From a bacterium (GTDB lineage Bacteria > Pseudomonadota > Alphaproteobacteria > Rhodobacterales > Rhodobacteraceae), in contig WGOE01000006.1 in assembly GCA_016124195.1 (NCBI GenBank), forward strand, positions 248,001 through 312,000: 64,000 bases of DNA, given 5' to 3'. Shown here piece after piece: positions 19,331-35,905 of the stretch (its first letter is position 1; each line of letters starts with the position of its first letter). The notes beneath the pieces were generated by a model. That model was not told the DNA's origin, did no database searches, and worked only from the letters and a program-made list of their open reading frames with translations. Position numbers and translations under genes: made by a program.

Positions 19331-20875
19331 TCATCGCCCATTCTCCCTGCCGATCGGTTTTCCGACTGCCAGCATCAAGACATTTTCTTCGTTGAAGTCG
19401 CCGCGGTCAAGAATGCCGGAAATCCGCCCCTCGTGCATGACCGCGATCCGGTCGGACACGCCGATGACCTCTTCCATGTCGCTCGAGATCATCAGGACGG
19501 CCACGCCGCTGGCGGCCAGGTCATGCATCAGCCGGTAGATCTCGGACTTGGCGCCGATGTCGATGCCCCGCGTCGGTTCATCGAAGATCAGCACCCTGGG
19601 CGTCATGGCCAGCCATTTGGCCAGCACGACCTTTTGCTGGTTGCCCCCCGACAGCGACCCGGCGCGCGTGGACAGCCGCGGCGCCTTGATGCCAAGATGG
19701 GTGCTTTGCAGGGCCGCCGTCCGCGTCTCGGAGGCGCGGCTGACCAGAAAGCCCCGGGCATGCCGGCCGAGGTCTGGCAGCGAGATGTTTTCGAGGATCG
19801 GCAAGTCCAGAATCAGCCCGGCCTCCTTGCGATCCTCGGGGACCAGGAAGATGCCCTTCGCCACGGCCTCTGCCGCGTGGCGGGGCCGGAAGGCCGCACC
19901 GTCCAGTTCGAAATGCCCGCCATGGATCGGGTCGATCCCGAACATCGCCCGCGCGAGTTCGGTGCGCCCGGACCCGACCAGACCGGCCAGCCCCAGGATC
20001 TCGCCCCGCCGCAGATCAAGCGTGACGGGCTGCGCGGGATGCGCGGCCGTCTGCACGCCCACCGCCGACAGGACCACGTCGCCCGGCGCGGCAGGCGCAG
20101 TCGGGCGCAGCACCTTGAGGTCGCGCCCGATCATCAGCCTGACCATGCGGTCATGGTCGATCTCGGCCCTGTCCAGCGTGCCGGCAAGCGCCCCGTCGCG
20201 CAGGACGACGACCCGGTCGGCCACCCTCTCGACCTCGTGCAGCCGGTGCGAGACGAAGATCACGCCGATGCCATCCGCCCGCAGGCCTGCGATCACATCC
20301 AGAAGCTTGTCGGTCTCGGACAGGGGCAGGCTCGAGGTCGGCTCGTCGAGGATGACCAGCCGCGCGTTCAGCGACAGGGCCTTGGCGATCTCGACCATCT
20401 GGCGTTGGGCCAGTGACAGATCCTGCACCCGCGCAAAGGAATCGAAATTGGCGCCGACCCGGCGCAACAGGGGATCGACCTTCCGGTGCAGCAGGGGTTC
20501 GTCCACAAAGCGCAGGATGCCGGCCCGGCGCGGCTCGCGCCCGATATAGACATTGGCCGCCACGTCCAGATTGTCGAACAGGTTGAGCTCCTGGTGCACG
20601 AAGGCGATGCCGGCGGCCATGCTTTCGGCCACGCCGAGCGCGGGGCGCGATGTGCCGTCCAGCATGATCGCCCCTTGGTCGGGGGCGATGACGCCGCCCA
20701 GAATCTTCATCAGCGTCGATTTGCCGGCGCCGTTTTCACCCACCAGTCCGATGACCTCTCCGGTCCGGACCTCCATCGAAAAATCCGCGAGAGCGACCAC
20801 GCCGGGATAGGCCTTGCGGATATGGGCCAGGCTCAGGAACGGGCCTGCGGGGGGAGCCGCCGCGGATTGGGTCAT
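19331..20875 (-). CDS. sugar ABC transporter ATP-binding protein (RbsA/XylG/MglA type)
   Basis: 514 residues with two fused nucleotide-binding domains, as in all RbsA-type ATPases. The first has Walker A GENGAGKSTLMK, signature LSLAQRQMVEIAKAL and Walker B LVILDEPTSSL. The second half has a degenerate Walker A (GLVGSGRTELARAM), signature LSGGNQQKVVLAKWL and LIFDEPTRGIDIGAK. This asymmetry is normal for the family. It energises uptake with the neighbouring permease. Confidence 0.95.
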   Translation of the reverse strand: MTQSAAAPPAGPFLSLAHIRKAYPGVVALADFSMEVRTGEVIGLVGENGAGKSTLMKILGGVIAPDQGAIMLDGTSRPALGVAESMAAGIAFVHQELNLFDNLDVAANVYIGREPRRAGILRFVDEPLLHRKVDPLLRRVGANFDSFARVQDLSLAQRQMVEIAKALSLNARLVILDEPTSSLPLSETDKLLDVIAGLRADGIGVIFVSHRLHEVERVADRVVVLRDGALAGTLDRAEIDHDRMVRLMIGRDLKVLRPTAPAAPGDVVLSAVGVQTAAHPAQPVTLDLRRGEILGLAGLVGSGRTELARAMFGIDPIHGGHFELDGAAFRPRHAAEAVAKGIFLVPEDRKEAGLILDLPILENISLPDLGRHARGFLVSRASETRTAALQSTHLGIKAPRLSTRAGSLSGGNQQKVVLAKWLAMTPRVLIFDEPTRGIDIGAKSEIYRLMHDLAASGVAVLMISSDMEEVIGVSDRIAVMHEGRISGILDRGDFNEENVLMLAVGKPIGRENGR

Positions 20876-20926
20876 GACATCTCATGCGTCTGGCGCCGGA
20901 CCGTGGGGCGTCCGGCGTGGGAAGGC

Positions 20927-20960
20927 GGCCGACCCCGCGCCGGATCGACGGGGGTCGGCC
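20927..20960 (-). promoter_or_regulatory. stem-loop in the binding-protein/ATPase gap
   Basis: GGCCGACCCC / GGGGTCGGCC, a 10-bp stem with a 14-nt loop. Such hairpins after ABC binding-protein genes usually protect the upstream message or partly stop transcription, giving an excess of binding protein. Confidence 0.6.
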
Positions 20961-20969
20961 CAGAGCCCG

Positions 20970-21929
20970 TCACTTGCCGGACATCGCCTTGAGTTGCGCG
21001 GCATAGGCGTCGATGTCGGCGGCATAAAGCACCCGGGTCGGGATGATCAGCTGGCCGTCCTTGGGCAATGGCGTCTTGTTGTCCTTGACATAGGCGGCCA
21101 TCAGCTTGAAGCCCTGATAGGCCCATTCGAAGGGCTGCTGCACGACCGTGCCGGCGATGTTGCCTTCCTTGACCCCGCCCAGGGTGATCGGATCATCATC
21201 AAAGCCCACGACGGTGATGGTGCCAAGCTTGCCAGCATCCTTCAAGGCCTCATAGATGCGCGGCGTGTTGTAGGAATAAAAGCCCACCATGCAGGTGATG
21301 TCGGGATTGGCGGCCAGCACGGCCTCGACATTGGCCTTGGCGCGGGTCTGGTCGATGTCGTCGCCGCGGGTGTCGACCAGCGTGATCTTGGTGCCCTTCA
21401 GCCCGTCCACGAAGCCCTGCGCGCGCTCCTTGTAGTTGGCGGCGTCCAGAAGGCCCACAAAGCCCATGCACTTGCCGCCGTCTGGCATCGCCTTCTTGGC
21501 GATCTCGGCCGCCTGACCCCCGGCCAGAACGTTCGAAGATCCGATATAGGCGATCCGCTTGCTGTTGGGCGCGTCGGAATCCGTCGTGAACAACGCCGTC
21601 TCGCCGGCGATCTTGTCAAGAACGTCGGTGGCCTTGGGATCGACGGCCGAAACCATGATGCCCTTGACCCCCGCGGTGACCAGATTGTCCATCAGGGTCT
21701 GCTGGATCGCGACCGAGGATTGTTCGGGATATTTGAACTCCAGCGTGAAGTCGGGAAGTTCGGCCTGGGCCTTTTTCATGCCGGCTTCCGCCGCTTTCCA
21801 GAAGTCCGAAGCCCCGTTGGCGACGAATGCCAGAACGGGTTTGTCGTCGGCCATCGCCGGCGCAAGCGTCGCGGCCCCCATCGCAAGGCCAAGGGCTGTT
21901 GCGGTGGCAAGTTTCAGTGCGTGCTGCAT
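20970..21929 (-). CDS. sugar ABC transporter substrate-binding protein (RbsB-like)
   Basis: 319 residues from the ATG at 21927-21929, with a signal peptide (HALKLATATALGLAMGAATLAPAMA). The mature part is a type I periplasmic binding fold: VLAFVANGASDFWKAAEAGMKKA, the GIMVSAVDPKA hinge, YIGSSNVLAGGQAAEIA and TVVGFDDDPITLGGVKEG. Sugars or sugar alcohols are the usual ligands. It is the first gene of the operon binding protein-ATPase-permease-LacI. Confidence 0.92.
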   Translation of the reverse strand: MQHALKLATATALGLAMGAATLAPAMADDKPVLAFVANGASDFWKAAEAGMKKAQAELPDFTLEFKYPEQSSVAIQQTLMDNLVTAGVKGIMVSAVDPKATDVLDKIAGETALFTTDSDAPNSKRIAYIGSSNVLAGGQAAEIAKKAMPDGGKCMGFVGLLDAANYKERAQGFVDGLKGTKITLVDTRGDDIDQTRAKANVEAVLAANPDITCMVGFYSYNTPRIYEALKDAGKLGTITVVGFDDDPITLGGVKEGNIAGTVVQQPFEWAYQGFKLMAAYVKDNKTPLPKDGQLIIPTRVLYAADIDAYAAQLKAMSGK

Positions 21930-22034
21930 CTCGTCTTCTCCCATGTGGCCGAGGGTCGGCCGAACCAAGTTCCGGTGCGCCTTTTCCAAGAGCGGCCCGG
22001 CACGGGCCTTCGCTCTGTCCTCTTCCCTGCGCAG

Positions 22035-22070
22035 GTAAATTCGTAATACGAGTAATAATATTAGTAAAGT
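22035..22070 (-). promoter_or_regulatory. AT-rich promoter/operator candidate of the sugar ABC operon
   Basis: An AT-rich island in otherwise GC-rich DNA, 100 bp before the binding-protein start. It contains the perfect palindromes TCGTA-A-TACGA (22041-22051) and TAATATTA (22056-22063). A LacI-type site overlapping the promoter is a reasonable inference. Confidence 0.45.
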
Positions 22071-22180
22071 TGAGTCTTGCCCGCGCCCGGCGGCAGGCCG
22101 GATGCGGCGCATTCTTGACCCGTGGCGCAGCGTGACCGGCGGCGCAAAGCCGCGTGGCCAGCCCTGCGGCAGGCGCCACA

Positions 22181-24200: not shown

Positions 24201-25322
24201 TCAGGCCAGCCGGGGCGCCAGCGCGGCAAGATCCGCACCCGCGATGACCCGGCCCGTCGCGGCCGAAAGCTGTGCGGCCTTGCCCATCGCCACCGCCCAC
24301 CAGCCGTCTTGCAGCGTCACATCGGGCTTGGTCCCGCGAAGGACGACCTCGGCAAAGCCACGGTGCTGATAGAAGGTCGATCCGTTGTGATCGCCTGCCG
24401 CCAGCAGGGCCGGATCGACCGGCACCTCAAGCACGCGGGGCCCTGCCGGCTGGCGCGGGCTGACGATGACCTGAGGCGTCGGCGCCGGACCCAGATGTGC
24501 CGGCCAGAACCGCCCCGGACCGGGGACCAGACATTCGATCTTGCCTTTCGGCCCCACGGCCGAGATCTCTTCCTGATAGCGCGCGCCTTCGGCGAACATG
24601 CAAAGCTCCAGCATGGCGCGCAGCCCGCTTTCGAAATCGACGATCACATAGGCATTGTCCCAGATGTCCGGGGTCTTTCCGTCATAGACCTCGTCCAGAT
24701 GATTGACCGACTGCCCGCCCGAGGCCATGACCCGCATCGGATCGCAGCCCGCGACCAGACGCATCAGGTCGAAGAAGTGGCAGCATTTCTCCACCAGCGT
24801 GCCGCCGGTATTGGCGTTGAAGCGGTTCCAGTCGCCGACCTTTTCCAGAAAGGGGAAGCGATGCTCGCGGATCGTCAGCATCTTTGCGCCGCCGGTGGCC
24901 GCCTGCACCTCGCGCAAAAGATGGGCGACCGGCGGCATGTAGCGATATTCCATCGCAACCCAGATCGGCGCGGGATAGCTGGCGCGCAGGCGGGCCAGCC
25001 GGTCGACATCGCCCGCATCGGTGAAAAGCGGCTTTTCCACCAGAACCGGCAGGGGGCGCAGGCGCGCGATCTCTTCCAGCTGGCCCAGATGGCGGTGATT
25101 GGGCGAGACGATCAGCAGGCAGTTGACCGCCTCCTCGGCCAGCACCTCGGCCAGCGAGCCCACCATCCGCGCCCCCGGGGCAAGCTCTGCCGCCCGCGCC
25201 CGCATCAGCGCGTCCGGTTCAAAGATCGCCACAACCTCGGCATCGGGCAGCAGGTGGATGTTGCGCAGATGCTCTTGCCCCATCATGCCGCAGCCAATGA
25301 TGCCGTACCGAATGGATTTCAT
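24201..25322 (-). CDS. Gfo/Idh/MocA-family oxidoreductase
   Basis: 373 residues. The Rossmann motif RYGIIGCGMMGQEH, the catalytic-Lys motif VLVEKPLFT and GGTLVEKCCHFFDLMRLVAG, which holds the active-site His, are all intact. The family oxidises or reduces sugars, inositols and their derivatives with NAD(P). It is followed on the 5' side by a GntR regulator 8 bp away and faces the monooxygenase operon. A sugar-type intermediate in that pathway is a fair inference. Confidence 0.93.
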   Translation of the reverse strand: MKSIRYGIIGCGMMGQEHLRNIHLLPDAEVVAIFEPDALMRARAAELAPGARMVGSLAEVLAEEAVNCLLIVSPNHRHLGQLEEIARLRPLPVLVEKPLFTDAGDVDRLARLRASYPAPIWVAMEYRYMPPVAHLLREVQAATGGAKMLTIREHRFPFLEKVGDWNRFNANTGGTLVEKCCHFFDLMRLVAGCDPMRVMASGGQSVNHLDEVYDGKTPDIWDNAYVIVDFESGLRAMLELCMFAEGARYQEEISAVGPKGKIECLVPGPGRFWPAHLGPAPTPQVIVSPRQPAGPRVLEVPVDPALLAAGDHNGSTFYQHRGFAEVVLRGTKPDVTLQDGWWAVAMGKAAQLSAATGRVIAGADLAALAPRLA

Positions 25323-25330
25323 GGGATGTC

Positions 25331-26047
25331 CTATTTCAAGCGTGCCACGTAGCGCACGGTTTCGGGGTCGTACCAGGTCCAGGAGGCTTCGGCGGTGCGG
25401 CCCTCCTGATCCCGGCTTAGCCGGGTGATCTGCGGCAGCGCGGTGCCCGCATCATGCGGAAATTCGGCCGGCGCCCAGGTGGGCAGGGGGCCCTGGCCGA
25501 TGCTGTCCTCGACCCGGGCGATCCAGAGCCCAAGCTGCTGGCGATAGTAAAGATAAAGCGATTCCGACAGATCGCCGATCTCGATCCGCGGGATATAGCT
25601 GCCATCGAGCCAGATCTCTTCGACCGCGGCGGCCTGGCCCGACAGCATGCGCAGGCGGCGGATGCGGTGGCCTTCGGCGCTGGTGCCAAAGGCGGGCAGG
25701 CGCGGGTCCTTCTTCAGGCGGTCCACCGACAGGACGCGCGCCGTGGGCAGCCCGCCGCCACTGGCCAGTTCAAGCCGGAACAGCGCATAGACCGAGTCCG
25801 GATTGGTCTGGGCGCGGACGTAATTGCCCGACCCCTGCACGCGGTCCAGCAGGCCCTTGGCCGTCAGCTCTTTCAGCGCCTGGCGCAGCGTGCCGACCGC
25901 AATGCCCAGAGTTGCCGCCATGTCCCGTTCGGGCGGCAAACGCTCGCCCGGGATCAGCCGGCCCGCGGCGATGTCACGGATCAGCAATTCGCTGATCTGC
26001 AGGTAGAGCGGCAGGGATCCCGGAGCGGCCATCGGCAGCAAATCCAA
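25331..26047 (-). CDS. GntR-family (HutC/UTRA) transcriptional regulator
   Basis: 238 residues. A winged HTH (PLYLQISELLIRDIAAGRLIPGERLPPERDMAATLGIAVGTLRQALKEL, shown only as landmarks: PGERLPPERDMAATLGIAVG) is followed by a UTRA ligand domain (EEIWLDGSYIPRIEIGDLSE). An ATG five codons in (26032) is an alternative start. It lies between its probable targets: the dehydrogenase gene downstream and the divergent monooxygenase operon. UTRA domains bind small molecules such as sugar phosphates, amino acids or phosphonates. Confidence 0.93.
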   Translation of the reverse strand: MDLLPMAAPGSLPLYLQISELLIRDIAAGRLIPGERLPPERDMAATLGIAVGTLRQALKELTAKGLLDRVQGSGNYVRAQTNPDSVYALFRLELASGGGLPTARVLSVDRLKKDPRLPAFGTSAEGHRIRRLRMLSGQAAAVEEIWLDGSYIPRIEIGDLSESLYLYYRQQLGLWIARVEDSIGQGPLPTWAPAEFPHDAGTALPQITRLSRDQEGRTAEASWTWYDPETVRYVARLK

Positions 26048-26051
26048 AAAT

Positions 26052-26076
26052 TGATACAGTATTGATCTACATCAAA
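26052..26076. promoter_or_regulatory. candidate GntR operator in the divergent promoter region
   Basis: TTGATCTACATCAA (26063-26076) is a perfect TTGAT-N4-ATCAA palindrome, and another TTGAT lies 11 bp earlier at 26052. It sits just before the GntR start and 48 bp before the monooxygenase ATG, where a repressor could close both promoters. Confidence 0.5.
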
Positions 26077-26123
26077 GCGGATGCTACGCAAGAGAAAAGT
26101 TGCGACCGGGGGGAAGCGAATCA

Positions 26124-27281
26124 ATGACCATCGTGCCGATCACCTCGCCTGATCTGGCGGCTGCCGAAATCAGCTGGTTTGCGGCGCTCTGCTCGGACGA
26201 CTATGCCTATCTTGGCGTGCCGGACGGGGCGCTGCGGTCCAGCTGGGACCATTGTTCCGACATCGTGAAGCGGGCCGAGGCTTTGGGTTTTCGCAACATC
26301 CTGTGTCCGTCCTCCTATCAGGTCGGCCAGGACACGCTGAGCTTTGTGGCCGGCTGTGCGCCGATCACGCGCGACATCAACTTTCTGGCCGCAATCCGCT
26401 GTGGCGAGATGCAGCCGATCATGCTGGCGCGCACGGTGGCCACGCTGGATCACATGCTCAAGGGGCGGCTGACGCTCAATGTGATCAGCTCCGATTTCCC
26501 GGGCGAGGTGGCCTCATCGGCCCATCGCTACATCCGCAGCCATGAGGTCGTGGAGATCCTGCGGCAAGCCTGGACGCGTGAGAAGATCGACTTTCAGGGC
26601 GAGGTCTATCAGTTCAAGGGCGTGCCGACCGATCCGGCCCGGCCCTATCAGCAGAACGGCGGGCCGCTCTTGTACTTTGGCGGCTATTCGCCCGATGCGC
26701 TGGAACTGTGCGGCGCGCAATGCGATGTCTATCTGATGTGGCCCGAACCGATGGCGCAACTGGCCCAGCGGATGCGCGATGTGCATGCCCGGGCCGAGGC
26801 GCATGGCCGGACGCTCGACTATGGCCTGCGCGTCCACATGATCGTGCGCGACACCGAAGCCGAGGCCAAGGACTATGCCGAACACCTGGTCAGCAAGCTT
26901 GATGACGAATACGGCAAGCTGATCCGCGACCGGGCCCATGACAGCACCAGCCTTGGCGTGGCGCATCAGGCCCGGGCGCGCGAACTGGCCGACCAGTTCG
27001 GCTATGTCGAGCCTGGCATGTGGACGGGCATCGGCCGGGCGCGGTCGGGCTGTGGCGCGGCGCTGGTCGGCTCGGTCGATCAGGTGATGACCAAGATCGA
27101 GGCCTATCAGAAGATGGGCATCCGCGCCTTCATATTCTCGGGCTATCCGCATCTGGACGAGGCGGATCATTTCGGCACCAAGGTGCTGCCGCATCTGAAG
27201 ACCTGCTCTTTGCCGCATGCCTATGGGCGCGTGCCGGCCGAAACCCCCGCCACCCCCCTGGGCAATGGAGTGCGACGTTGA
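26124..27281 (+). CDS. SsuD-type LLM-class FMNH2-dependent monooxygenase
   Basis: 385 residues aligning throughout with alkanesulfonate monooxygenase SsuD: LAAIRCGEMQPIMLARTVATLD, LYFGGYSPDALELCGAQCDVYLMW, GLRVHMIVRDTEAEA (the SsuD Arg226/His228 pair), ARSGCGAALVG (Arg297 region) and FSGYPHLDEAD (Tyr331 region). The SsuD Cys54 position is not kept (SYQVGQDT instead of GRSCED). The enzyme should use reduced flavin and O2 to cleave a C-S or related bond. It overlaps the next gene by ATGA. The flavin reductase two genes on is its likely partner. Confidence 0.93.
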   Translation: MTIVPITSPDLAAAEISWFAALCSDDYAYLGVPDGALRSSWDHCSDIVKRAEALGFRNILCPSSYQVGQDTLSFVAGCAPITRDINFLAAIRCGEMQPIMLARTVATLDHMLKGRLTLNVISSDFPGEVASSAHRYIRSHEVVEILRQAWTREKIDFQGEVYQFKGVPTDPARPYQQNGGPLLYFGGYSPDALELCGAQCDVYLMWPEPMAQLAQRMRDVHARAEAHGRTLDYGLRVHMIVRDTEAEAKDYAEHLVSKLDDEYGKLIRDRAHDSTSLGVAHQARARELADQFGYVEPGMWTGIGRARSGCGAALVGSVDQVMTKIEAYQKMGIRAFIFSGYPHLDEADHFGTKVLPHLKTCSLPHAYGRVPAETPATPLGNGVRR

Positions 27282-28171
27282 TGGAACGGATTTCCCTGGG
27301 CGCTGTCAGCCTGTCTCGGCTGGTCTATGGCATGTGGCGGATCGGCGATGATCCCGACACGAGCCCCGCCCATGTCCAGGCCAAGATCGAGGCCTGCCTT
27401 GCGCAGGGCATCACCTCGTTCGATCAGGCCGACATCTACGGCGGCTATACTGCCGAGGCTATCCTGGGTGCCGCCCTCAAGGCCGCGCCGGGCCTGCGCG
27501 ACCAGATGCAGATCGTGACGAAATGCGACATCGTGGCCCCGGTCGGGCGCCACGCGGCGGCGCGGGTGAAATATTACGACACCTCGGCGGCCCACATCAA
27601 CGCCTCGGTCGAGGCTTCGCTGCGCGAGATGGGCATCGAGACCATCGACCTTCTGCTGATCCACCGCCCCGATCCCCTGATGGACCATGTCGAGACCGGG
27701 GCCGCGCTGGATGGGCTGGTGGCCTCGGGTAAGGTCCGCAGCGTCGGCGTGTCGAACTTCCGGCCCTGGGATGTGAAGCTTCTGCAATCGGCCATGACCA
27801 CGCGGCTTGCGACCAACCAGATCGAATTGAGCCTGATCGCGCACGAGGCTTTCACCAACGGCGACGTGGCCTTCCATCAGGAACAGGCGATGCCCCTGAT
27901 GGCCTGGTCGCCCCTGGCGGGCGGGCGGCTCTTGTCCGAGGCGGATGCCGCCCTGCGCCAGCGCCTGACCGCGATCGGCGCCGCGCATGGTACTGACTGG
28001 ACGGCGGTGGCGGTGGCCTGGCTCTTGCGCCATCCGGCGCGGATCCTGCCGGTGCTGGGCACCAACACCCTGTCGCGCATTGCCGCGATCGGCGATGCGC
28101 ACAAGGTCGAAATCGACCGGCAGACCTGGTTCGAACTTTACACTCTGGCCCTGGGACACGAGGTGGCGTGA
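27281..28171 (+). CDS. aldo/keto reductase, YdhF type
   Basis: 296 residues. The AKR catalytic tetrad is visible: Asp and Tyr in DQADIYGGYT, Lys in IVTKCDI and His in LLLIHRPDPL. The sequence follows E. coli YdhF closely (ATNQIELSLIAHEAF, MAWSPLAGGRL, LPVLGTNTLSRI). It would reduce an aldehyde or ketone with NADPH, for example the carbonyl left after oxygenation by the upstream monooxygenase. It overlaps both neighbours (ATGA, TGATG), so the three enzymes are translationally coupled. Confidence 0.94.
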   Translation: MERISLGAVSLSRLVYGMWRIGDDPDTSPAHVQAKIEACLAQGITSFDQADIYGGYTAEAILGAALKAAPGLRDQMQIVTKCDIVAPVGRHAAARVKYYDTSAAHINASVEASLREMGIETIDLLLIHRPDPLMDHVETGAALDGLVASGKVRSVGVSNFRPWDVKLLQSAMTTRLATNQIELSLIAHEAFTNGDVAFHQEQAMPLMAWSPLAGGRLLSEADAALRQRLTAIGAAHGTDWTAVAVAWLLRHPARILPVLGTNTLSRIAAIGDAHKVEIDRQTWFELYTLALGHEVA

Positions 28172-28689
28172 TGGCGGATGGCGGGTCCATGAACGGCAGC
28201 GATTTCACCCCGAGCGTCGAGAATGCCCGCGCCTTTCGCGACGCTCTGGGCCATTTCACCACCGGCGTCACGGTGATCACCATCCGCGGGCCGGCCGGTC
28301 CGATGGGATTTACCGCCAACAGCTTTTCCAGCCTGTCGATGGACCCGCCGCTGGTCCTGTGGTCGCTGGCAAAATCCGCCGGGCGCTATCCGCATTTCGC
28401 GGCGGCGCAGCACTTTTCCATCCACGTGCTGCGCGCCGAACAGGCCCGCCTGATTGAAAGGTTTCACCGCAGCGGCGCGGGCTTTGACGGGCTGGAGCAT
28501 GATCTGACACCGCAGGACGTGCCGGTGATCCCGGGCGCCCTGGCCCGGTTCGATTGTCAGCAGCACGCGACCTACGAGGGAGGCGATCATCTGATCGTCG
28601 TGGGCCGTGTGCAGCGTGTCGTGGCCAATGACGGGATGCCGCTGGTCTTTTCCAAGGGCCGGATGGGACGGTTCTCGGCGGCGCTCTGA
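28171..28689 (+). CDS. flavin reductase family protein
   Basis: 172 residues of the FMN-binding split-barrel family: FRDALGHFTTGVTVITI, GFTANSFSSLSMDPPLVLWSLAK and HLIVVGRVQRV are its signatures. It supplies FMNH2 to the LLM monooxygenase encoded 1 kb upstream, completing a two-component system. An ATG at 28189 is an alternative start. I prefer 28171, which overlaps the preceding stop codon. Confidence 0.92.
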   Translation: MADGGSMNGSDFTPSVENARAFRDALGHFTTGVTVITIRGPAGPMGFTANSFSSLSMDPPLVLWSLAKSAGRYPHFAAAQHFSIHVLRAEQARLIERFHRSGAGFDGLEHDLTPQDVPVIPGALARFDCQQHATYEGGDHLIVVGRVQRVVANDGMPLVFSKGRMGRFSAAL

Positions 28690-28742
28690 CCGCGGAAGGA
28701 GGGCGCCCGGCCAATCCGGCAGGGCGTGAAGGGAGGAAAAAG

Positions 28743-29330
28743 GTGCAGCTAGTCTTGAGCCTTTCCAACGGCTTGGGGGCAATCAATGCCGCCGTCCTGG
28801 CACTTGGCCGCTGGCTGGGGGCGACCTGCATTGCGGTCATGGTGGTCATCATCATCGTGCAGGTCTTCTTTCGCTATGTGCTGAACGACGCGCTGGCCTG
28901 GCCCGAAGAGGCCTCGCGGTTCCTGATGCTCTGGATGACCGGCCTGATGGCGCCGACGGCGTTCCGGCGCGGCGGCTTCGTGTCGATCGAGATGCTGGTG
29001 CGCTTTCTGCCCCAGCGCCCGGCGGCGCTGTTGACGATCCTGCTTTTGGGGCTGTCGCTTCTGGTCCTGGTGGTGGGCGCGCGGATCGGCTGGTCCGAGG
29101 TGACCGGCCTCGGCGGCCATTTCACCACCGACAGCCTTTCGGTCCCGAGCCTCGATTTCAAGACCTGGAGCAAGGTGCCCAAGTCCTGGATGATGGCGTC
29201 GCTCTTCGTGGGGCTGGTGCTGCTGATCTCGGTCTGTGTCGAACTGATCCTGCGCGCCCTGACCACGCTGGCTGGCGGTGCGGCGCGGCTGATGGAGATT
29301 CCCGAAGCGGCCGTGGGAGGAAGCGAGTGA
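28743..29330 (+). CDS. TRAP transporter small permease (DctQ type)
   Basis: 195 residues with four transmembrane helices, from a GTG start after GGGAGGAAAAAG. The DctQ core YVLNDALAWPEEASRFLMLWMTG is present. The protein links binding protein and large permease in the inner membrane. It follows the flavin reductase by 53 bp and overlaps the dctM-type gene (GTGATG). Confidence 0.92.
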   Translation: MQLVLSLSNGLGAINAAVLALGRWLGATCIAVMVVIIIVQVFFRYVLNDALAWPEEASRFLMLWMTGLMAPTAFRRGGFVSIEMLVRFLPQRPAALLTILLLGLSLLVLVVGARIGWSEVTGLGGHFTTDSLSVPSLDFKTWSKVPKSWMMASLFVGLVLLISVCVELILRALTTLAGGAARLMEIPEAAVGGSE

Positions 29331-30619
29331 TGCTGTCCTTCTTCCTGCCGCTCTTCCTTGTTCTGCTGCTCCTTGGTCTGCCCGTATTCTTCGGCCTGAT
29401 CGCGGCACCGGCGCTCTTGCTGTGGCTGAACGGGCAAGAGCGTGACATCGTCCTGCTTTATCGCAACATCTACAACGGGATGGACAGTTTCCCGCTGATG
29501 GCGATCCCCTTCTTCATGCTGGCCGGCGAGGTGATGAACCGCTCCAACATCACGCTGCGGCTGGTCGAGTTCAGCCAGGCGATGATGGGCCATCTGCGCG
29601 GCGGGCTGGCGCATGTCAACGTGCTGTCCTCGATGCTGTTCGCCGGGCTGTCAGGCTCGGCCGTGGCCGATGTCTCGGCGCTGGGGTCGATGCTGATCCC
29701 GGCGATGGAGAAACAGGGCTACACCCGGACCTTCGCCGCCGCCATCACGGCATCAAGTTCGATCATCGGGCCGATCATCCCGCCGTCCGGCATCATGATC
29801 ATCTATGCCTATGTGATGGGCGAAAGCGTCGCGGCGCTGTTTCTGGCCGGGATCGTGCCGGGCATCATGATCGGCGCCGGATTGATGCTGATGATCCACT
29901 TTCTGGCCGACCGCTACAACCTGCCGGCACGTACCCAGCGCGCCTCGTGGGGCCAGCGCGGGCAGGCGAGCCTCAAGGCGATCTGGCCGCTTCTGACCCC
30001 GGTGATCATCCTTGGCGGCATCCTCGGCGGCGTCTTCACCCCGACCGAAGCCGCGGCGGTGGCGGTGGCCTATTCGACCTTCATCGGCTTTTTCGTGCTG
30101 CGCTCGCTCAAGCTGTCGGACATTCCCGACGTGCTGACCCGGGCCGGCCTGACCTCGGCGGTGGTGCTGCTGCTGGTGGGCGCGGCCATGGCCTTCAAGA
30201 CCGTCGCCAGCCTGAGCCACACGCCCGAGCTTCTGGCCGGCATCATCCTGGGCCTGTCGAAAAATCCGCTGATCCTGTTGTTCCTGATCAACATCCTGTT
30301 GTTCATCGTCGGCATGTTCCTTGATGCCGGCCCCGCGATCATCATCCTCGGGCCGATCCTCGGGCCGATCTTCGTCTCGATGGGGGTGAATTCGGTGCAT
30401 TTCGCCATCATCATGGCGGTGAACCTCACGGTGGGGCTGCTGACCCCGCCCATGGGACTTGTGCTGTTCGTCACCTCTTCCGTCTCGGGCCTGCGGGTCG
30501 AGACGATTGCCCGGGCCACCTTGCCGTTCCTCGCGGTCGAAGTCGTGGTGATCTTCCTGATCACCTATATCCCCGCCCTCAGCCTGACGGTGCCGCGTCT
30601 GTTCGGCTTCGTCCACTAA
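29330..30619 (+). CDS. TRAP transporter large permease (DctM type)
   Basis: 429 residues, twelve or so helices. Typical landmarks: NGMDSFPLMAIPFFMLAGEVMN, LSGSAVADVSALGSMLIPAM, IIPPSGIMIIYAYV and the VFTPTEAAAVAVAYS motif. This is the ion-coupled transport channel of the system and works with the small subunit and the binding protein at 30650. Confidence 0.95.
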   Translation: MLSFFLPLFLVLLLLGLPVFFGLIAAPALLLWLNGQERDIVLLYRNIYNGMDSFPLMAIPFFMLAGEVMNRSNITLRLVEFSQAMMGHLRGGLAHVNVLSSMLFAGLSGSAVADVSALGSMLIPAMEKQGYTRTFAAAITASSSIIGPIIPPSGIMIIYAYVMGESVAALFLAGIVPGIMIGAGLMLMIHFLADRYNLPARTQRASWGQRGQASLKAIWPLLTPVIILGGILGGVFTPTEAAAVAVAYSTFIGFFVLRSLKLSDIPDVLTRAGLTSAVVLLLVGAAMAFKTVASLSHTPELLAGIILGLSKNPLILLFLINILLFIVGMFLDAGPAIIILGPILGPIFVSMGVNSVHFAIIMAVNLTVGLLTPPMGLVLFVTSSVSGLRVETIARATLPFLAVEVVVIFLITYIPALSLTVPRLFGFVH

Positions 30620-30649
30620 ATGCGCGATCAAACCAAAAGGGAGAAGAAG

Positions 30650-31711
30650 ATGATGATGAAAGCTCTGAAATCGGCGGTTTTGGCCGCGCTGCTGGCCGGG
30701 TCGGCCAATCTGGCGCTGGCGCAGGACATCACCCTGCGCGCGACGGCCAATTCCAACGAGAATGACGAGGATTACGACGGTCTGGTCGTCTTCAAGAACT
30801 ATGTCGAGAATGCTTCGAACGGTGCGATCAAGGTTGAATTGTTCATCGGCACCCAGCTTTGCGCCAAGGGCGACGAATGTCTGGCCGGCGTGGCCGATGG
30901 GTCGATCGACATCTATATCTCGACTTCGGGCGGGGCGGCGGGGCTGTTTCCCTATATCCAGGTGCTGGACCTGCCTTACCTGATGTCGGATGACCGGGTG
31001 GCCGAGACCGTGCTGACCCAGACCGATTTCACCAAGACCCTGCGCGAGATGGCGCTGAAGGACAGCGACAACAAGATCCGCCTGATGACGATCGGCAATA
31101 CCGGCGGCTGGCGCAACTTCGCCAATACCAAGCACCGCATCTCGACCCCGGCCGATCTGAAGGGGCTGAAGATGCGGACCGTGCCCGCCGATCTGCCGCA
31201 GTTCCTGGCCACCACGCTTGGCGCCGCGCCGACGCCTATCCCGTGGCCGGAACTGTTCACCTCGCTGCAGACCGGCGTGGTCGATGGCACCGCCAACGGC
31301 ATCACCGACATCATGTCGATGAAGTTCCCCGATGCCGGCCTGAAATATCTAACGCTGGACGGCCATTCCTACATGGGCGCCTTCTGGTGGATGGGGCAGG
31401 ACCGCTTCGCCTCGCTGACAGATGCGCAAAAGCAGGTCATCGTGGATGGGTTTGCGGCGCTGCAGCAGGCCACGTTCGCCAGCCCCAAGCGCAAGGAGAT
31501 CCAGGCCTATGCCGATTTCAAGGCTGCCGGGGGCGAGGTCTATGTGCCTTCGGCTGAAGAGAAGGCCGCCTTCAAGGCTGCCGTGGCCCCGGTGATGGAT
31601 TGGTTCAAGGCCAATGTCAAAGGCGGCCCCGAAGTGCTGGCCAGCTTTGACGGCGCCGTGGCTGAGGCGCAGAAAATCGTGGACGCAGAGCGCGCGGCCG
31701 AACTGCAATAG
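30650..31711 (+). CDS. TRAP transporter substrate-binding protein (DctP type)
   Basis: 353 residues. The ATG at 30650 follows AAAAGGGAGAAGA; an in-frame ATG at 30620 would spoil the signal peptide (LKSAVLAALLAGSANLALAQ). The DctP fold shows ADLKGLKMRTVPADLPQFLA, whose Arg normally clamps a carboxylate (and could clamp a sulfonate), and the LQTGVVDGTANGITDI segment. It should deliver an organic anion to the DctQM pair. Last gene of the six-gene operon. Confidence 0.93.
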   Translation: MMMKALKSAVLAALLAGSANLALAQDITLRATANSNENDEDYDGLVVFKNYVENASNGAIKVELFIGTQLCAKGDECLAGVADGSIDIYISTSGGAAGLFPYIQVLDLPYLMSDDRVAETVLTQTDFTKTLREMALKDSDNKIRLMTIGNTGGWRNFANTKHRISTPADLKGLKMRTVPADLPQFLATTLGAAPTPIPWPELFTSLQTGVVDGTANGITDIMSMKFPDAGLKYLTLDGHSYMGAFWWMGQDRFASLTDAQKQVIVDGFAALQQATFASPKRKEIQAYADFKAAGGEVYVPSAEEKAAFKAAVAPVMDWFKANVKGGPEVLASFDGAVAEAQKIVDAERAAELQ

Positions 31712-31717
31712 CCGGTC

Positions 31718-31760
31718 GTGACGGTGTCGCGGCCTTGTCCCAAGGCTGCGATACTGTCAC
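31718..31760 (+). terminator. long imperfect hairpin ending the TRAP operon
   Basis: A 20-bp stem (GTGACGGTGTCGCGGCCTTG / CAAGGCTGCGATACTGTCAC), whose three non-Watson-Crick positions are G-T wobbles, follows the stop codon by 6 bp. It has no T-run. Confidence 0.65.
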
Positions 31761-32510
31761 GGTGCCACAACCCCGCTGCCCTCGGTCTGCCTGTCGGGCG
31801 GGCACAATCCGGCAGGCGCGCTGGTTCCCGGGGCGCCGCCGCAAATGGAGGGCTGTTTACACGGATACCTGGGCGCATCGCCTGCGCATCGCCTGCGCAT
31901 CGCCTGCGCAATGCGGCCGATCATGGGATCGAGCCGGCCGACCGCGCCGGGGTCCCTTGGAATGGCGTAACCCAGGCATCGATCTCAACACCCAAGCGCC
32001 CGAACGGGCCCGCCGCGCGACCCATCCCGATGCGGTGATCGCCCCGGGCATCCGCCATATGGTGTTGCGATGCCGCAGCGCGCCCCATCCGTGTCAACTG
32101 CCGAGGGTCTCCGTGTCAGCCGCTCCCGGTCCCGGGGCGAGCTCCTCTTCCTTTCGACCGCGCAAGCAACCTGGGGCGATGCGCTGGGCGCCATCCCACG
32201 GGCATGGGCGCCCCGGGGCCTGGCCGAAAAGCATGTCGCCGGCACCACGAGCGAAGCCAGTCCGCCCTCGTCGCGGCCCTTTCGGTCGCGACCGATGCGA
32301 TCATGGCGCCGGAAACCGCGACGCGGCGGGTGCAAGGCGAACCCGCGCCGATCTGCCGCGGAAAATGTCCGGTTCGGATAAACCGGTCGCCCCCGCGCAG
32401 ACGGGCCCGGCGTAGTCTCGCCACCGCAGGATGCGCGCCGGGCCTGGCTTCCGACTTTTCGGCGAATGCGCCCGCAGGCCGCGATCAGGATCAGGATTGG
32501 AGGAGTTGAA
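31761..32510. other. 750-bp stretch with no identifiable gene
   Basis: Frames here are short, Arg/Pro-rich and lack ribosome sites, and none resembles a known family. It contains three direct copies of CATCGCCTGCG (31876-31908). It could be eroded coding DNA or a long 5' region of the next gene. No RNA gene was recognised. Confidence 0.5.
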
Positions 32511-33557
32511 ATGACGTCACAGGGCAGGAGTGGTCCCAGAATAGCCTTCTTGGGTGCCGGGGCGCAGGGTGCATCGATTGCGGCGGACTTTGCGCTGGCC
32601 GGGCTGGACGTGACGATCATCGACCAGTGGCCGGCCCATGTCGAGGCGATCCGGCGTGACGGCATCACGGTGAACCTGCCCAAGCGGACCATCAACGCAC
32701 GGCCACCGGCGCTGCATCTGTGTCAGGTTGCCGAGGTCAAGGTGCCCTTCGACCTCGTTTTCCTGGTGGTCAAGGCCTATGACACGCGCTGGGCCTGCGA
32801 ACTGATCAAACCGGTGCTGGCCGAGGACGGCTTTGTCGTGGGCCTGCAAAACGGCATGACCCATGGCGACATCGCCGCCGCAGTCGGGCCGCAGCGCACC
32901 ATCGGGGCCGTGATCGAGATCGCCTCGAACATGTTCGTGCCGGGCGTGACCAACCGTCAGAACGATCACGACACGTCGTGGTTCGCGCTTGGGGCGCTGG
33001 AGCCTGCCATGCAGCACCGGGTCGAGGCGGTGGCCGACCTCTTGCGCTGCACCGGCACGGTCGAGGTGCGCGACGACATCCATTCGGCCAAATGGATGAA
33101 ACTGGTGGTGAATGCGGCCGAACTGATCCCTTCGGCCATCATCGACACGGCGCTGCGCGCGGCGGCCGATGTGCCGGGCATGCTGAACCTGATGCGCAGG
33201 GCCGGCTATGAGGCGATCGACGCGGCCATGAAGGACGGCGCCGAGATCGTGCCGATCATCGGCATGCCGCCGGTCACCACAAACGATCCTGAACGCTATG
33301 TCGACATGATCTTTGAAGAGGTGCTCAAGACCTTTTCGCAGGGCGACACGCTGACCACCTCGCTGCAGGACTGGCGCAAGGGGCGGCGGGCCGAGGTGCA
33401 GGAGATCAATGGCTGGGTGGTCGAAACGCTTCGAAGGCACGGCAAATCCGCGGCGGTCAATCAGCATGTCGTCGATCTGGCGCTGGAGATCGAGGCCGGC
33501 CGTCTGCCCTTGCAGCAGGCCAATGTCGCAAAGTTGATCGCCGTGCCCGGGGTCTGA
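32511..33557 (+). CDS. ketopantoate reductase (PanE/ApbA)-family dehydrogenase
   Basis: 348 residues. The N-terminal Rossmann motif (IAFLGAGAQGASIAADFALAG) and the C-terminal helical domain with catalytic Lys in SAKWMKLVVNA fit the family. The start follows GGAGG. Members outside pantothenate synthesis reduce or oxidise 2-keto or hydroxy acids. The position after a catabolic operon favours such a role. It is 800 bp from the TRAP genes, so it probably has its own promoter. Confidence 0.88.
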   Translation: MTSQGRSGPRIAFLGAGAQGASIAADFALAGLDVTIIDQWPAHVEAIRRDGITVNLPKRTINARPPALHLCQVAEVKVPFDLVFLVVKAYDTRWACELIKPVLAEDGFVVGLQNGMTHGDIAAAVGPQRTIGAVIEIASNMFVPGVTNRQNDHDTSWFALGALEPAMQHRVEAVADLLRCTGTVEVRDDIHSAKWMKLVVNAAELIPSAIIDTALRAAADVPGMLNLMRRAGYEAIDAAMKDGAEIVPIIGMPPVTTNDPERYVDMIFEEVLKTFSQGDTLTTSLQDWRKGRRAEVQEINGWVVETLRRHGKSAAVNQHVVDLALEIEAGRLPLQQANVAKLIAVPGV

Positions 33558-33632: not shown

Positions 33633-35651
33633 TCAGATCACCAGGAAATCGGCATAGGTCAGCGCCGGGTGTCCGTCCAGAACCGCGAACTGGACGCTGG
33701 CCCCCGTGCCGCTGCCATCGGCATCGAAGAACAGCTGTCCGGTCGCGGTGTCATAGACGATGCGGTCGGTGGCATGGGCGGCCAGCCCCGTCGTGTTGGA
33801 CTCGAAGGCCTGCTGGGGCAGGTTTCCCGCCGAAAGCCCGGCGAAGGCCTGGTGGCCGACCCGGATCCTGTCCACCGTCCCGTCGAAATCGGTGATCGTG
33901 TCCAGATTGCCGGCCCCAAGTGCTGCGGTGAAGACGAAGGCATCGGCCCCGGCCCCGCCGGTCAGCGTGTCAGAGCCCAGCCCGCCGTTCAGCACATTGT
34001 TGCCGGCGTTGCCGATGATGTGGTTGTCCAGCGCATTGCCATTTCCATTGATCGCGGCGCTACCCAGCAGGGTCAGGTTCTCAAGGTTGGCGGCCAGGCT
34101 GTAGCTGGCCGAACTGCGCACCAGGTCGATCCCGGCATTCAGCGCCTCGACGATCTTGTCGCCGCCGTTGGTGATGTAGATGTCATTGCCCAGACCGCCC
34201 GCCAGCGTGTCGATCCCGAGCCCGCCGGACAGCACGTCATTGCCGTTGCCGCCATTCAGGTAATCGTTGCCGGCGCCGCCGTTGATCCTGTCGGCCCCGC
34301 CCGCGGCGTAGATCCGGTCGGCGGCCGTCCCGCCGGTCAGGGTGTCGTTGAAAAGCGTGCCGGCGATCGATTGCCCGGTGCTGGTGGCACTGTCGTTGAT
34401 GGTGACACCGGCAGAGCGGGTGTCATAGATCGCGCTGTGCAGGACATTGGTGGTGGCCGTCAGATCCTCGCGCCAGACCGCCTCGAACCGCCCGTCGCCA
34501 AGCGAGACGAGGTCGGTCAGATCACCGGTCGAGTGCGGCAGCGACAGGGTGGCGCCGACCTGATGTAGCGAGGCATCGAAGATCTTGATGAGCGAGCGCA
34601 GGCCATCGTCATAGCCGACCACGATGTTGCCAAAGCCGATGTGGGTCAGATGAACCGAGGTGGAAGAACCCGAGGCGACCTCGAACTCGGTGGTGTTGAT
34701 CACGGTGCCGGTTGGCCCCAGGGTCTGCAGCGCGATTTCCTCGTGCCGGAGGCCGGTGCTGTCGTGGTAGTGGAAGGTCTCGGTCAGAACGCCGTAGTCG
34801 CCTTTCGGGTCAAGGTCGCTGGGGCGGGAGAAGTTGAAATCGTCGATCCCGTTGGTGTTTTCGCCGTTCGGGCCATGGATGGTCAGGTCATGGGCGAAAT
34901 TGTCGGGCCCGGTCGTGCCATCCACCGCGACGGTCTGTATGTGGACCGCGCTCGTGACCCCCTGCGGCAGGCGGTACATCAGCAGATAGGCGGGGGCAGA
35001 GCCGCTTTGGGCCGTGAAATAGGTGCCGAAGGTGATGCCGTGATGCGAGCCGTCGTTGATCGAGGCGAAGACGCCTGCCGTCAGCGGCGTGCCGGCGTCC
35101 GAGATCGTCTCGAAGCCGATCTGGGTCGCGTGGCTTGACGGATCATAGGTCGAATAGGCGACCATGAAGCTGTTGCCGAAGTCTGCCGCGGCCGAGACGG
35201 TGATGTCATAGACATTGTGCACCGCAATGGTGCCGCCAAAGACCCAGGTGAAGGGCGCGCCGACCTTTGCGCCGCTGGCGTCATAGATCTGTTCATGGCC
35301 TGTCGTCGAGTCGGTCGCGGCATTGGTATAGGCGCCGCCCGTGGTCCAGAACACCGCATGTTCGCTCGCCGAAATCGGCAGGTCCTTGTAGCGGAAGGCA
35401 AAGGTCGCGCCGGTGCTGGGGTCGGTGGCCGGCACGTCGTAACTGGCAACCGTCGTGGCGCCTTGGACCAGATTTCCGAAAAAATCGAATTCCTTGTGGA
35501 AAAGCGTCACCCTGTAGGGCGCCGAGGCGCTGGTGCTCGTGGTGGTGGCATAGGCCATGTAAAGGCCACCCGCACCGTCGCTGACCAGACTGGGTTTGAA
35601 ATAGCGCCCGACCGGGGTCGTGGTTTCGGCGGACCATAGGTAAAATGTCAT
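33633..35651 (-). CDS. RTX-type calcium-binding secreted protein
   Basis: 672 residues from the ATG after AGGGATGAC. The first 430 residues are beta-rich without a known enzyme motif (starting MTFYLWSAETTTPVGRYFKP). Then come RTX nonapeptides GGxGxDxLx: GGADRINGGAGNDYLNGG, GNGNDVLSGG, GLGIDTLAGG, GLGSDTLTGGAGADAF. The C-terminus is a type I secretion-like end (FADFLVI region: HPALTYADFLVI). No N-terminal signal peptide is present, consistent with type I rather than type II export. No hlyB/hlyD genes adjoin it. Confidence 0.9.
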   Translation of the reverse strand: MTFYLWSAETTTPVGRYFKPSLVSDGAGGLYMAYATTTSTSASAPYRVTLFHKEFDFFGNLVQGATTVASYDVPATDPSTGATFAFRYKDLPISASEHAVFWTTGGAYTNAATDSTTGHEQIYDASGAKVGAPFTWVFGGTIAVHNVYDITVSAAADFGNSFMVAYSTYDPSSHATQIGFETISDAGTPLTAGVFASINDGSHHGITFGTYFTAQSGSAPAYLLMYRLPQGVTSAVHIQTVAVDGTTGPDNFAHDLTIHGPNGENTNGIDDFNFSRPSDLDPKGDYGVLTETFHYHDSTGLRHEEIALQTLGPTGTVINTTEFEVASGSSTSVHLTHIGFGNIVVGYDDGLRSLIKIFDASLHQVGATLSLPHSTGDLTDLVSLGDGRFEAVWREDLTATTNVLHSAIYDTRSAGVTINDSATSTGQSIAGTLFNDTLTGGTAADRIYAAGGADRINGGAGNDYLNGGNGNDVLSGGLGIDTLAGGLGNDIYITNGGDKIVEALNAGIDLVRSSASYSLAANLENLTLLGSAAINGNGNALDNHIIGNAGNNVLNGGLGSDTLTGGAGADAFVFTAALGAGNLDTITDFDGTVDRIRVGHQAFAGLSAGNLPQQAFESNTTGLAAHATDRIVYDTATGQLFFDADGSGTGASVQFAVLDGHPALTYADFLVI

Positions 35652-35905
35652 TTTGTCATCCCTGAAATCAACGGAAACAGTGCGAATGTATCGGGGGCGG
35701 GTCAGCTGAAATCGCATCGCCCCGGGCACTATCGCGCAAGCGGCCTGTTGCGAGAAGATGCGGCCGAACCGGCGTCGATCACGTTCCTGTGGGGCCGCCA
35801 TGGGTTCAGCCGCGCTGTCGGGCCGGGAAATACCCCGGGGTCTCGATACCAAATCTTAGCGCCTTGCATGCTATCGGACAGGGCGGCAGAACAAGGACGG
35901 CTTCG

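What the first reader, a model, noticed from the sequence alone, without database searches (positions are those of the whole stretch)
24201..33557. Candidate oxidative desulfonation pathway for a sugar-like sulfonate, fed by a TRAP transporter
Seen: an SsuD-type FMNH2 monooxygenase, a YdhF-type aldo/keto reductase and a flavin reductase overlap as one coupled block, followed by a full TRAP transporter; a Gfo/Idh/MocA (sugar-type) dehydrogenase and a UTRA-GntR regulator are divergent. Known: in the sulfo-SMO route of Agrobacterium, the enzymes SmoC (SsuD-like), SmoB (aldo/keto reductase) and SmoA (flavin reductase) remove sulfite from sulfoquinovose and reduce the product. Inference: this cluster does the same chemistry on a free sulfonate imported by TRAP instead of ABC. 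No sulfoquinovosidase or SmoF-like protein is present, so the substrate may differ (for example a smaller sulfonated sugar, sulfo-acid or another heteroatom compound).
Basis: partly seen in the sequence, partly recalled or inferred. Interest (0 to 1): 0.78.

Follow-up and report, generated by a model that had tools for sequence, protein, structure and literature searches.

The report
Sulfoquinovose desulfonation cluster with TRAP importer
This stretch of a Rhodobacteraceae-type genome carries the known bacterial route that strips sulfite from the plant and algal sulfosugar sulfoquinovose, but with a different kind of importer (a TRAP transporter), which gene context suggests is a widespread and little noticed way of taking this abundant sugar into cells.

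Summary
The observed genes are real and correctly placed. The monooxygenase, aldo/keto reductase and flavin reductase are orthologues of SmoC, SmoB and SmoA of the sulfo-SMO pathway (SmoC 769 bits to PDB 7olf, next family 212; SmoB 457 against 209). The substrate is most likely sulfoquinovose (SQ) or its glycosides. The new part is the TRAP. Of 295 family genomes, 123 have SmoC, 102 the TRAP binding protein, 75 both, 71 linked. In 17 of 26 fetched regions from genomes with this TRAP but no SmoC, it sits with a sulfo-EMP-like set: SQ-isomerase-like, PfkB kinase and GH188 in 17 of 17, aldolase in 15. A single clade for those TRAPs is rejected (p-AU 0.00135). One transporter shared by two SQ routes points to SQ or SQ glycoside as cargo. 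Binding, transport and activity are untested. I found no TRAP importer for SQ in the literature I could search; two key papers were not held.

The parts
24201..25322 (-). sqgA-like: GH188 NAD+-dependent sulfoquinovosidase (Gfo/Idh/MocA fold); no signal peptide seen by inspection, so probably cytosolic
   Evidence: 527 bits to 8zn9, 378/373 bits to 8qc3/8qc2; 53% identical to ArSqgA; residues matching K107, Y136, R166, L170, K172, E189, H193, H321 all kept
25331..26047 (-). smoD-like GntR/UTRA regulator (open frame from TTG 26047; likely start ATG 26032)
   Evidence: Pfam GntR + UTRA; divergent from smoC in the 63 of 63 TRAP-linked loci fetched
26049..26066 (.). conserved operator-like site AATTGATACAGTATTGAT between gntR and smoC
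   Evidence: core invariant in 14 aligned loci; only site in own genome at up to 2 mismatches, reversed-pattern control 0; a site with up to 3 mismatches in 187 of 191 SMO loci against 1 of 17 sulfo-EMP-like TRAP loci and 2 of 13 other loci
26124..27281 (+). smoC: FMNH2-dependent sulfoquinovose monooxygenase
   Evidence: 769/768 bits to 7olf/7oh2, 212 to 7jv3, 203 to SsuD-type 1nqk/1m41; single match at E<=0.001 in own genome
27281..28171 (+). smoB: aldo/keto reductase, 6-oxo-glucose to glucose (inferred)
   Evidence: 457 bits to 7bbz/7bby, next 209 (4r9o), YdhF 199
28171..28689 (+). smoA: flavin reductase (possible start 28171 or 28189)
   Evidence: Pfam PF01613 117 bits; NCBIfam FerA 216 bits, below its 260 cut-off; found in 61 of 63 linked loci
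28743..29330 (+). TRAP small permease DctQ
   Evidence: PF04290 86 bits
29327..30619 (+). TRAP large permease DctM
   Evidence: TIGR00786 428 bits, cut-off 268
30653..31711 (+). TRAP solute-binding protein DctP with signal peptide (inspection); proposed SQ / SQ-glycoside binder
   Evidence: PF03480 188 bits; no close solved relative, best 117 bits to 4nq8; linked to smoC in 71 family genomes

Best explanation
A sulfolytic sulfoquinovose (SQ) utilisation operon of the sulfo-SMO type. The TRAP transporter (DctPQM) imports SQ and, most likely, SQ glycosides such as sulfoquinovosyl glycerol. The GH188 enzyme SqgA, in the cytosol, releases SQ by transient NAD+ oxidation at C3. SmoA supplies reduced flavin to SmoC, which uses O2 to split SQ into sulfite and 6-oxo-glucose, and SmoB reduces that to glucose for central metabolism. 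Sulfite is oxidised by sulfite dehydrogenases encoded elsewhere in the genome (SorA; a SoeABC-like set beside a TauE gene) or exported. A GntR/UTRA regulator acts at one operator between the divergent units. Shown by sequence: orthology of the enzymes, SqgA site residues, conserved operator-like site, linkage of the TRAP to SQ genes in many genera. Inferred: every activity, the cargo of the TRAP, the place of SqgA, and the mode of regulation.
For: SmoC and SmoB orthology by score gap. GH188 identity and residues, read against the sites in PMC10755693, whose authors report near-universal GH188 in Roseobacter sulfo-SMO clusters. TRAP-SmoC linkage in 71 of 75 genomes that have both; the other 4 have the two on different contigs. 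Of 26 fetched DctP-only regions, 17 carry an SQ-isomerase-like gene, and of those 17 have PfkB kinase, 17 GH188, 15 the aldolase. The DctP tree mixes SMO and EMP neighbourhoods; one EMP clade rejected, p-AU 0.00135. Among 80 named SmoC loci: 24 TRAP (23 GH188, 0 GH31), 25 SmoF-type ABC (24 GH31, 1 GH188), 16 another ABC (16 GH188), 15 none of these. Same operator-like site in TRAP and ABC clusters. SorA over its cut-off, a SoeABC-like set and TauE genes in the own genome; no GH31.
Against: No activity, binding or growth data. DctP has no close solved relative and its model was poor (mean pLDDT 49.3), so the pocket could not be inspected. Of 110 fetched family loci with SmoC, 35 have neither this TRAP nor the ABC binding proteins searched for, so sulfo-SMO does not require it. 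Nine of 26 DctP-only regions lack the SQ-isomerase-like gene: L121, L137, L160 and L206 show no SQ-specific enzyme that I recognise, L124 only a flavin reductase, and L123, L130, L132 and L242 keep parts of the SMO cluster without SmoC. The SQ-isomerase match in the sister clusters is remote (279 bits, cut-off 700), so calling them sulfo-EMP rests on the gene set.
Confidence: 0.87

Rival explanations
1. One reading: the cluster desulfonates a different free sulfonate (smaller sulfosugar, sulfo-acid), and the TRAP brings that in.
For: TRAP transporters often carry small acids (recalled); DctP is far from any solved binder.
Against: SmoC and SmoB are close to their SQ-pathway orthologues; GH188 with the SQ and sulfonate contacts is in the cluster; the same TRAP goes with a second, sulfo-EMP-like SQ set.
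Confidence: 0.06
2. The enzymes degrade SQ, but the TRAP carries an unrelated organic acid and is linked by chance or by shared regulation.
For: Cargo cannot be read from the sequence; 35 of 110 fetched SmoC loci lack both this TRAP and the ABC proteins sought; a few TRAP loci show no SQ enzyme.
Against: Linkage in one direction in 71 genomes of different genera, 24 named loci including Rhizobiales, presence in two different SQ pathways, and TRAP and ABC binding proteins mostly replacing each other.
Confidence: 0.06
3. An ordinary ssu-type alkanesulfonate scavenging system used under sulfur limitation.
For: The best NCBIfam model for the monooxygenase is alkanesulfonate monooxygenase (251 bits).
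Against: That score is under half of the model's cut-off of 518; SmoC-type chains score 769 against 203-212 for SsuD-type ones; SmoB and GH188 belong to SQ use.
Confidence: 0.01

Closest known systems
Sulfo-SMO pathway (SmoABC; also sulfo-ASMO, SquD/SquF) of Agrobacterium, Novosphingobium and Roseobacter-clade bacteria
   Same: Orthologous SmoC, SmoB and SmoA, a divergent GntR regulator and the same operator-like site as in Agrobacterium-type loci
   Different: TRAP DctPQM in place of the SmoF-type ABC set, GH188 in place of GH31
GH188 NAD+-dependent sulfoquinovosidase SqgA (8qc2, 8qc3; PMC10755693)
   Same: 53% identity to ArSqgA; mapped SQ and sulfonate contacts kept; the authors place GH188 in Roseobacter sulfo-SMO clusters
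   Different: No difference found at the site; the main text of that paper has no occurrence of TRAP, transporter, permease or uptake
Sulfo-EMP-like GH188 clusters in family genomes (17 fetched regions, e.g. L119)
   Same: Same TRAP and GH188
   Different: SQ-isomerase-like, PfkB and aldolase genes, usually a DeoR regulator (13 of 17), instead of SmoABC and GntR
TRAP binding proteins for isethionate (8t9t) and other small acids
   Same: DctP family; 100 bits to 8t9t
   Different: Distant; the proposed cargo is a sulfonated hexose or its glycoside

Membership tests
Sulfo-SMO pathway | SmoC-type SQ monooxygenase | tested here: met
   769/768 bits to 7olf/7oh2 against 212 for the next family; that these chains are SmoC is recalled
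Sulfo-SMO pathway | SmoB-type 6-oxo-glucose reductase | tested here: met
   457 bits to 7bbz/7bby against 209 next; that these chains are SmoB is recalled
[quoted passage not shown]
   found in 61 of 63 linked loci
Sulfo-SMO pathway | a sulfoquinovosidase (GH31 or GH188) in the cluster | tested here: met
   GH188; no GH31 match in own genome
Sulfo-SMO pathway | SmoF-type ABC importer (Agrobacterium form; not defining for the chemistry) | tested here: not met
   TRAP instead
Sulfo-SMO pathway | sulfite release from SQ with glucose formed | not testable with these tools
   needs an enzyme assay
GH188 SqgA | catalytic and SQ-contact residues K107, Y136, E189, H193, H321 | tested here: met
   all kept in the window protein and in 161 of 161 copies counted, out of 167 loci with a hit. 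The paper's E163 did not map: under my offset the position falls on R, with E next to it, so it is not counted
GH188 SqgA | sulfonate contacts R166, L170, K172 | tested here: met
Alkanesulfonate monooxygenase SsuD (TIGR03565) | score over the curated cut-off | tested here: not met
   250.7 against 518.2
TRAP transporter | DctP, DctQ and DctM encoded together | tested here: met
SQ / SQ-glycoside TRAP importer (proposed) | binding and transport of SQ or sulfoquinovosyl glycerol | not testable with these tools
   supported by gene context alone

The most novel reading that the evidence does not exclude
This DctPQM is a dedicated TRAP importer for sulfoquinovose and its glycosides: a sugar-sulfonate TRAP family that serves both the sulfolytic (SMO) and a sulfo-EMP-like route, has moved between them more than once, goes with GH188 and not GH31, and is the commonest SQ entry route in Rhodobacteraceae.
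Probability: 0.75. Interest if true: 0.55.

Novelty: new variant of a known kind. Interest (0 to 1): 0.42.

Why it matters
SQ is made at about ten billion tons a year (figure from PMC10755693). Knowing the importer used by Roseobacter-type bacteria would give a marker gene for SQ uptake, join the GH188 sulfoquinovosidase (which needs the glycoside inside the cell) to an import route, and make the question of free SQ against SQ-glycerol use in aquatic bacteria testable with one binding protein.

Tried and rejected
Rejected: an ssu-type sulfur-scavenging system (scores too low); the PanE-like gene 32499-33557 as a pathway member. No terminator-like site was found after DctP in 31650-32550. The structure model of DctP from 21 sequences was poor (mean pLDDT 49.3), so no fold search was made. 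The SQ-isomerase-like protein of the sister clusters has no solved relative at E 1e-10. Reading downstream ORFs in nine SmoC-only loci gave no common transporter. L130 and L242, which keep SmoB without SmoC, were read for a replacement oxygenase next to SmoB; none was recognised by eye (no family search). The Glu163 site of SqgA could not be mapped cleanly. Literature: 10 of 10 searches used. SQ + monooxygenase + TRAP transporter gave no paper; SQ + tripartite ATP-independent gave two, on gut taurine degraders, not opened. 'trap' as a whole word with SQ gave 46 papers, 30 listed; of these I opened only PMC12421959, where the passage shown means a chromatography column. The 2022 PNAS sulfo-SMO paper and the 2023 ISME J Roseobacter paper are not held and may mention the TRAP; what I know of them is recalled.
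Full report
What is there. The window (G000:C17:248001-312000 of a 4.26 Mb, 18-contig genome) holds two divergent units. On the minus strand lie a Gfo/Idh/MocA gene (24201-25322) and a GntR/UTRA regulator (25331 to about 26032). On the plus strand lie an LLM monooxygenase (26124-27281), an aldo/keto reductase (27281-28171), a flavin reductase (to 28689) and the TRAP genes DctQ, DctM, DctP (28743-31711). The monooxygenase stop and the reductase start share a base, and so do the reductase stop and an ATG of the flavin reductase. The nearest named relatives of SmoC and DctP are in a Pseudorhodobacter MAG (94%; 91%).

The enzymes. The monooxygenase scores 769 and 768 bits against 7olf and 7oh2, which the PDB labels methanesulfonate sulfonatase and alkanesulfonate monooxygenase; that these are SmoC, and that 7bbz/7bby are SmoB, is recalled. 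The next chain, 7jv3, scores 212 and SsuD-type chains 203. The SsuD and SfnG models of NCBIfam score far under their cut-offs. The reductase scores 457 bits against 7bbz/7bby and 209 against the next. Named Agrobacterium loci with 84-88% identical monooxygenases carry, in order, GH31, ABC genes, GntR, SmoC, SmoB, SmoA, which is the Agrobacterium smo cluster as I recall it. I built no tree of the monooxygenase.

The missed sulfoquinovosidase. The Gfo/Idh/MocA protein scores 527 bits against 8zn9 and 378 and 373 against 8qc3 and 8qc2. The last two are GH188 NAD+-dependent sulfoquinovosidases (PMC10755693; parts 1-3 of 4 read). I mapped nine residues named there. Eight (K107, Y136, R166, L170, K172, E189, H193, H321) are the same in the window protein and in 161 of 161 copies counted; 167 loci had a hit of 40% or more, six being left out for coverage under 85% or a stop. 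The ninth, E163, was off by one under my numbering and is not counted. The protein shows no signal peptide by inspection, so hydrolysis should be inside the cell and glycosides must be imported. The own genome has no GH31 match.

Survey of the TRAP. Of 295 genomes of the family (own included; 294 genera), 123 match SmoC at E<=1e-100 and 102 match DctP at E<=1e-60. Both occur in 75. In 71 they lie on one contig and strand, DctP downstream by 2.1-6.0 kb, 68 of the 71 by 3.3-3.8 kb. In the other four the two lie on different contigs. Counts are by tblastn with identity thresholds set by me. Of 63 linked loci fetched (of 70 besides the own one), DctQ, DctM, DctP, GntR and SmoC are found in 63, SmoB in 62, SmoA in 61, SqgA in 60; 59 have all eight in the window's order and strands. 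Of 43 SmoC-only loci fetched (of 48), SqgA is found in 39 and the SBP1-type ABC binding protein in 12. Over the 110 fetched family loci with SmoC: 63 TRAP (60 with SqgA), 12 ABC, 35 neither; GH31 in none. One linked SmoC (G216) has a stop inside.

Two pathways, one transporter. Of 27 DctP-only genomes 26 regions were fetched. In 17 the TRAP sits with an SQ-isomerase-like gene (NCBIfam sulfoquinovose isomerase SftI at 279 bits in L119, cut-off 700, so remote). Of these 17, all have the PfkB kinase and GH188, 15 the DeoC/LacD aldolase, 13 the DeoR regulator, 10 GalM, 9 the SSADH-type dehydrogenase (families). This is a sulfo-EMP-like set by composition, untested. The other nine: L123, L130 and L242 keep SmoB but not SmoC, L124 only SmoA, L132 SqgA and GntR; L121, L137, L160 and L206 show no SQ-specific enzyme that I recognise. 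Three DctP-only genomes have distant DctPs (38, 47 and 50%; L160, L235, L206), L235 being one of the 17. On a quick tree of 118 DctPs the SMO and EMP neighbourhoods mix: 11 label changes by parsimony, 3 forced by well-supported branches. With the three distant rows left out (115 rows, 16 EMP), one EMP clade is rejected (lnL 173 lower, p-AU 0.00135); 54 of 112 inner branches are weakly supported, and EMP rows are still more clustered than in shuffles. A transporter that moves between two chemically different routes and stays with GH188 is best explained by the shared starting compound.

Beyond the family. TRAP loci occur in Rhizobium, Pannonibacter, Martelella and Agrobacterium albertimagni besides Rhodobacterales.

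Regulation. The gntR-smoC gap holds AATTGATACAGTATTGAT at 26049-26066; its core is invariant in 14 aligned TRAP and ABC loci. A site with up to 3 mismatches occurs in 187 of 191 SMO loci (86 of 88 with TRAP, 101 of 103 without) against 1 of 17 EMP+TRAP and 2 of 13 other loci; whole loci were scanned, and the 14 used for the consensus are included. The two of the 13 are L123 and L132, relics of SMO clusters. The own genome has one site at up to 2 mismatches and none for the reversed pattern. No binding was tested.

Sulfite. The own genome has SorA (654 bits, cut-off 600), a SoeABC-like set beside a TauE and an AckA-like gene at C5:703-709 kb (molybdopterin, Fe-S and DmsC domains, but no model names it SoeA) and 7 TauE matches. 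Any could deal with sulfite; none is linked to the cluster.

Known or new. GH188 in Roseobacter sulfo-SMO clusters is published (PMC10755693). By term search inside the papers, PMC12890257, PMC13372026, PMC9594981, PMC11465081 and PMC10755693 have no 'trap' (passages seen), and PMC12421959 speaks of ABC transporters for SQ uptake (passages). Supplements were not readable. The two primary sulfo-SMO papers most likely to show these genes are not held, so the TRAP may already appear there. I therefore call it a new variant of a known kind. The structure attempt failed, so the case for the cargo rests on gene context alone.

Noticed in passing
L119:9546-11393 and many survey loci near DctP: A MauG-like di-haem peroxidase (about 615 aa, PF03150) lies near the TRAP in 36 of 63 linked SMO loci and 17 of 26 DctP-only regions, but in only 3 of 43 SmoC-only loci. 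It is not in the window locus. Role in SQ clusters unknown.
   Followed up: partly
L123, L132, L130, L242: SmoC (L123, L130, L242) or SmoC, SmoB and SmoA (L132) are missing from clusters that keep the TRAP; in L123 only about 270 bp separate SmoB and GntR.
   Followed up: partly
SmoC loci of the survey: 35 of 110 fetched SmoC loci have neither this TRAP nor the ABC binding proteins sought; their SQ importer is unknown.
   Followed up: partly
window 32499-33557: PanE/ApbA-like reductase next to the cluster, not found in the neighbourhoods of relatives.
   Followed up: yes
window about 31876-31912: Short direct repeat with a gcgcatcgcct unit between DctP and the PanE-like gene (seen).
   Followed up: no
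window 33633-35852 (-): Large protein with glycine/aspartate-rich nonapeptide repeats of the RTX calcium-binding type (inspection).
   Followed up: no
window 19331-22112 (-): Sugar-type ABC ATPase and a periplasmic binding protein next door (inspection).
   Followed up: no
L041, L048, L106: A YeiH-type (PF03601) membrane protein and a gene that looks like a LysR regulator follow SmoA in three Agrobacterium/Rhizobium loci, a possible sulfite or sulfate exporter.
   Followed up: no
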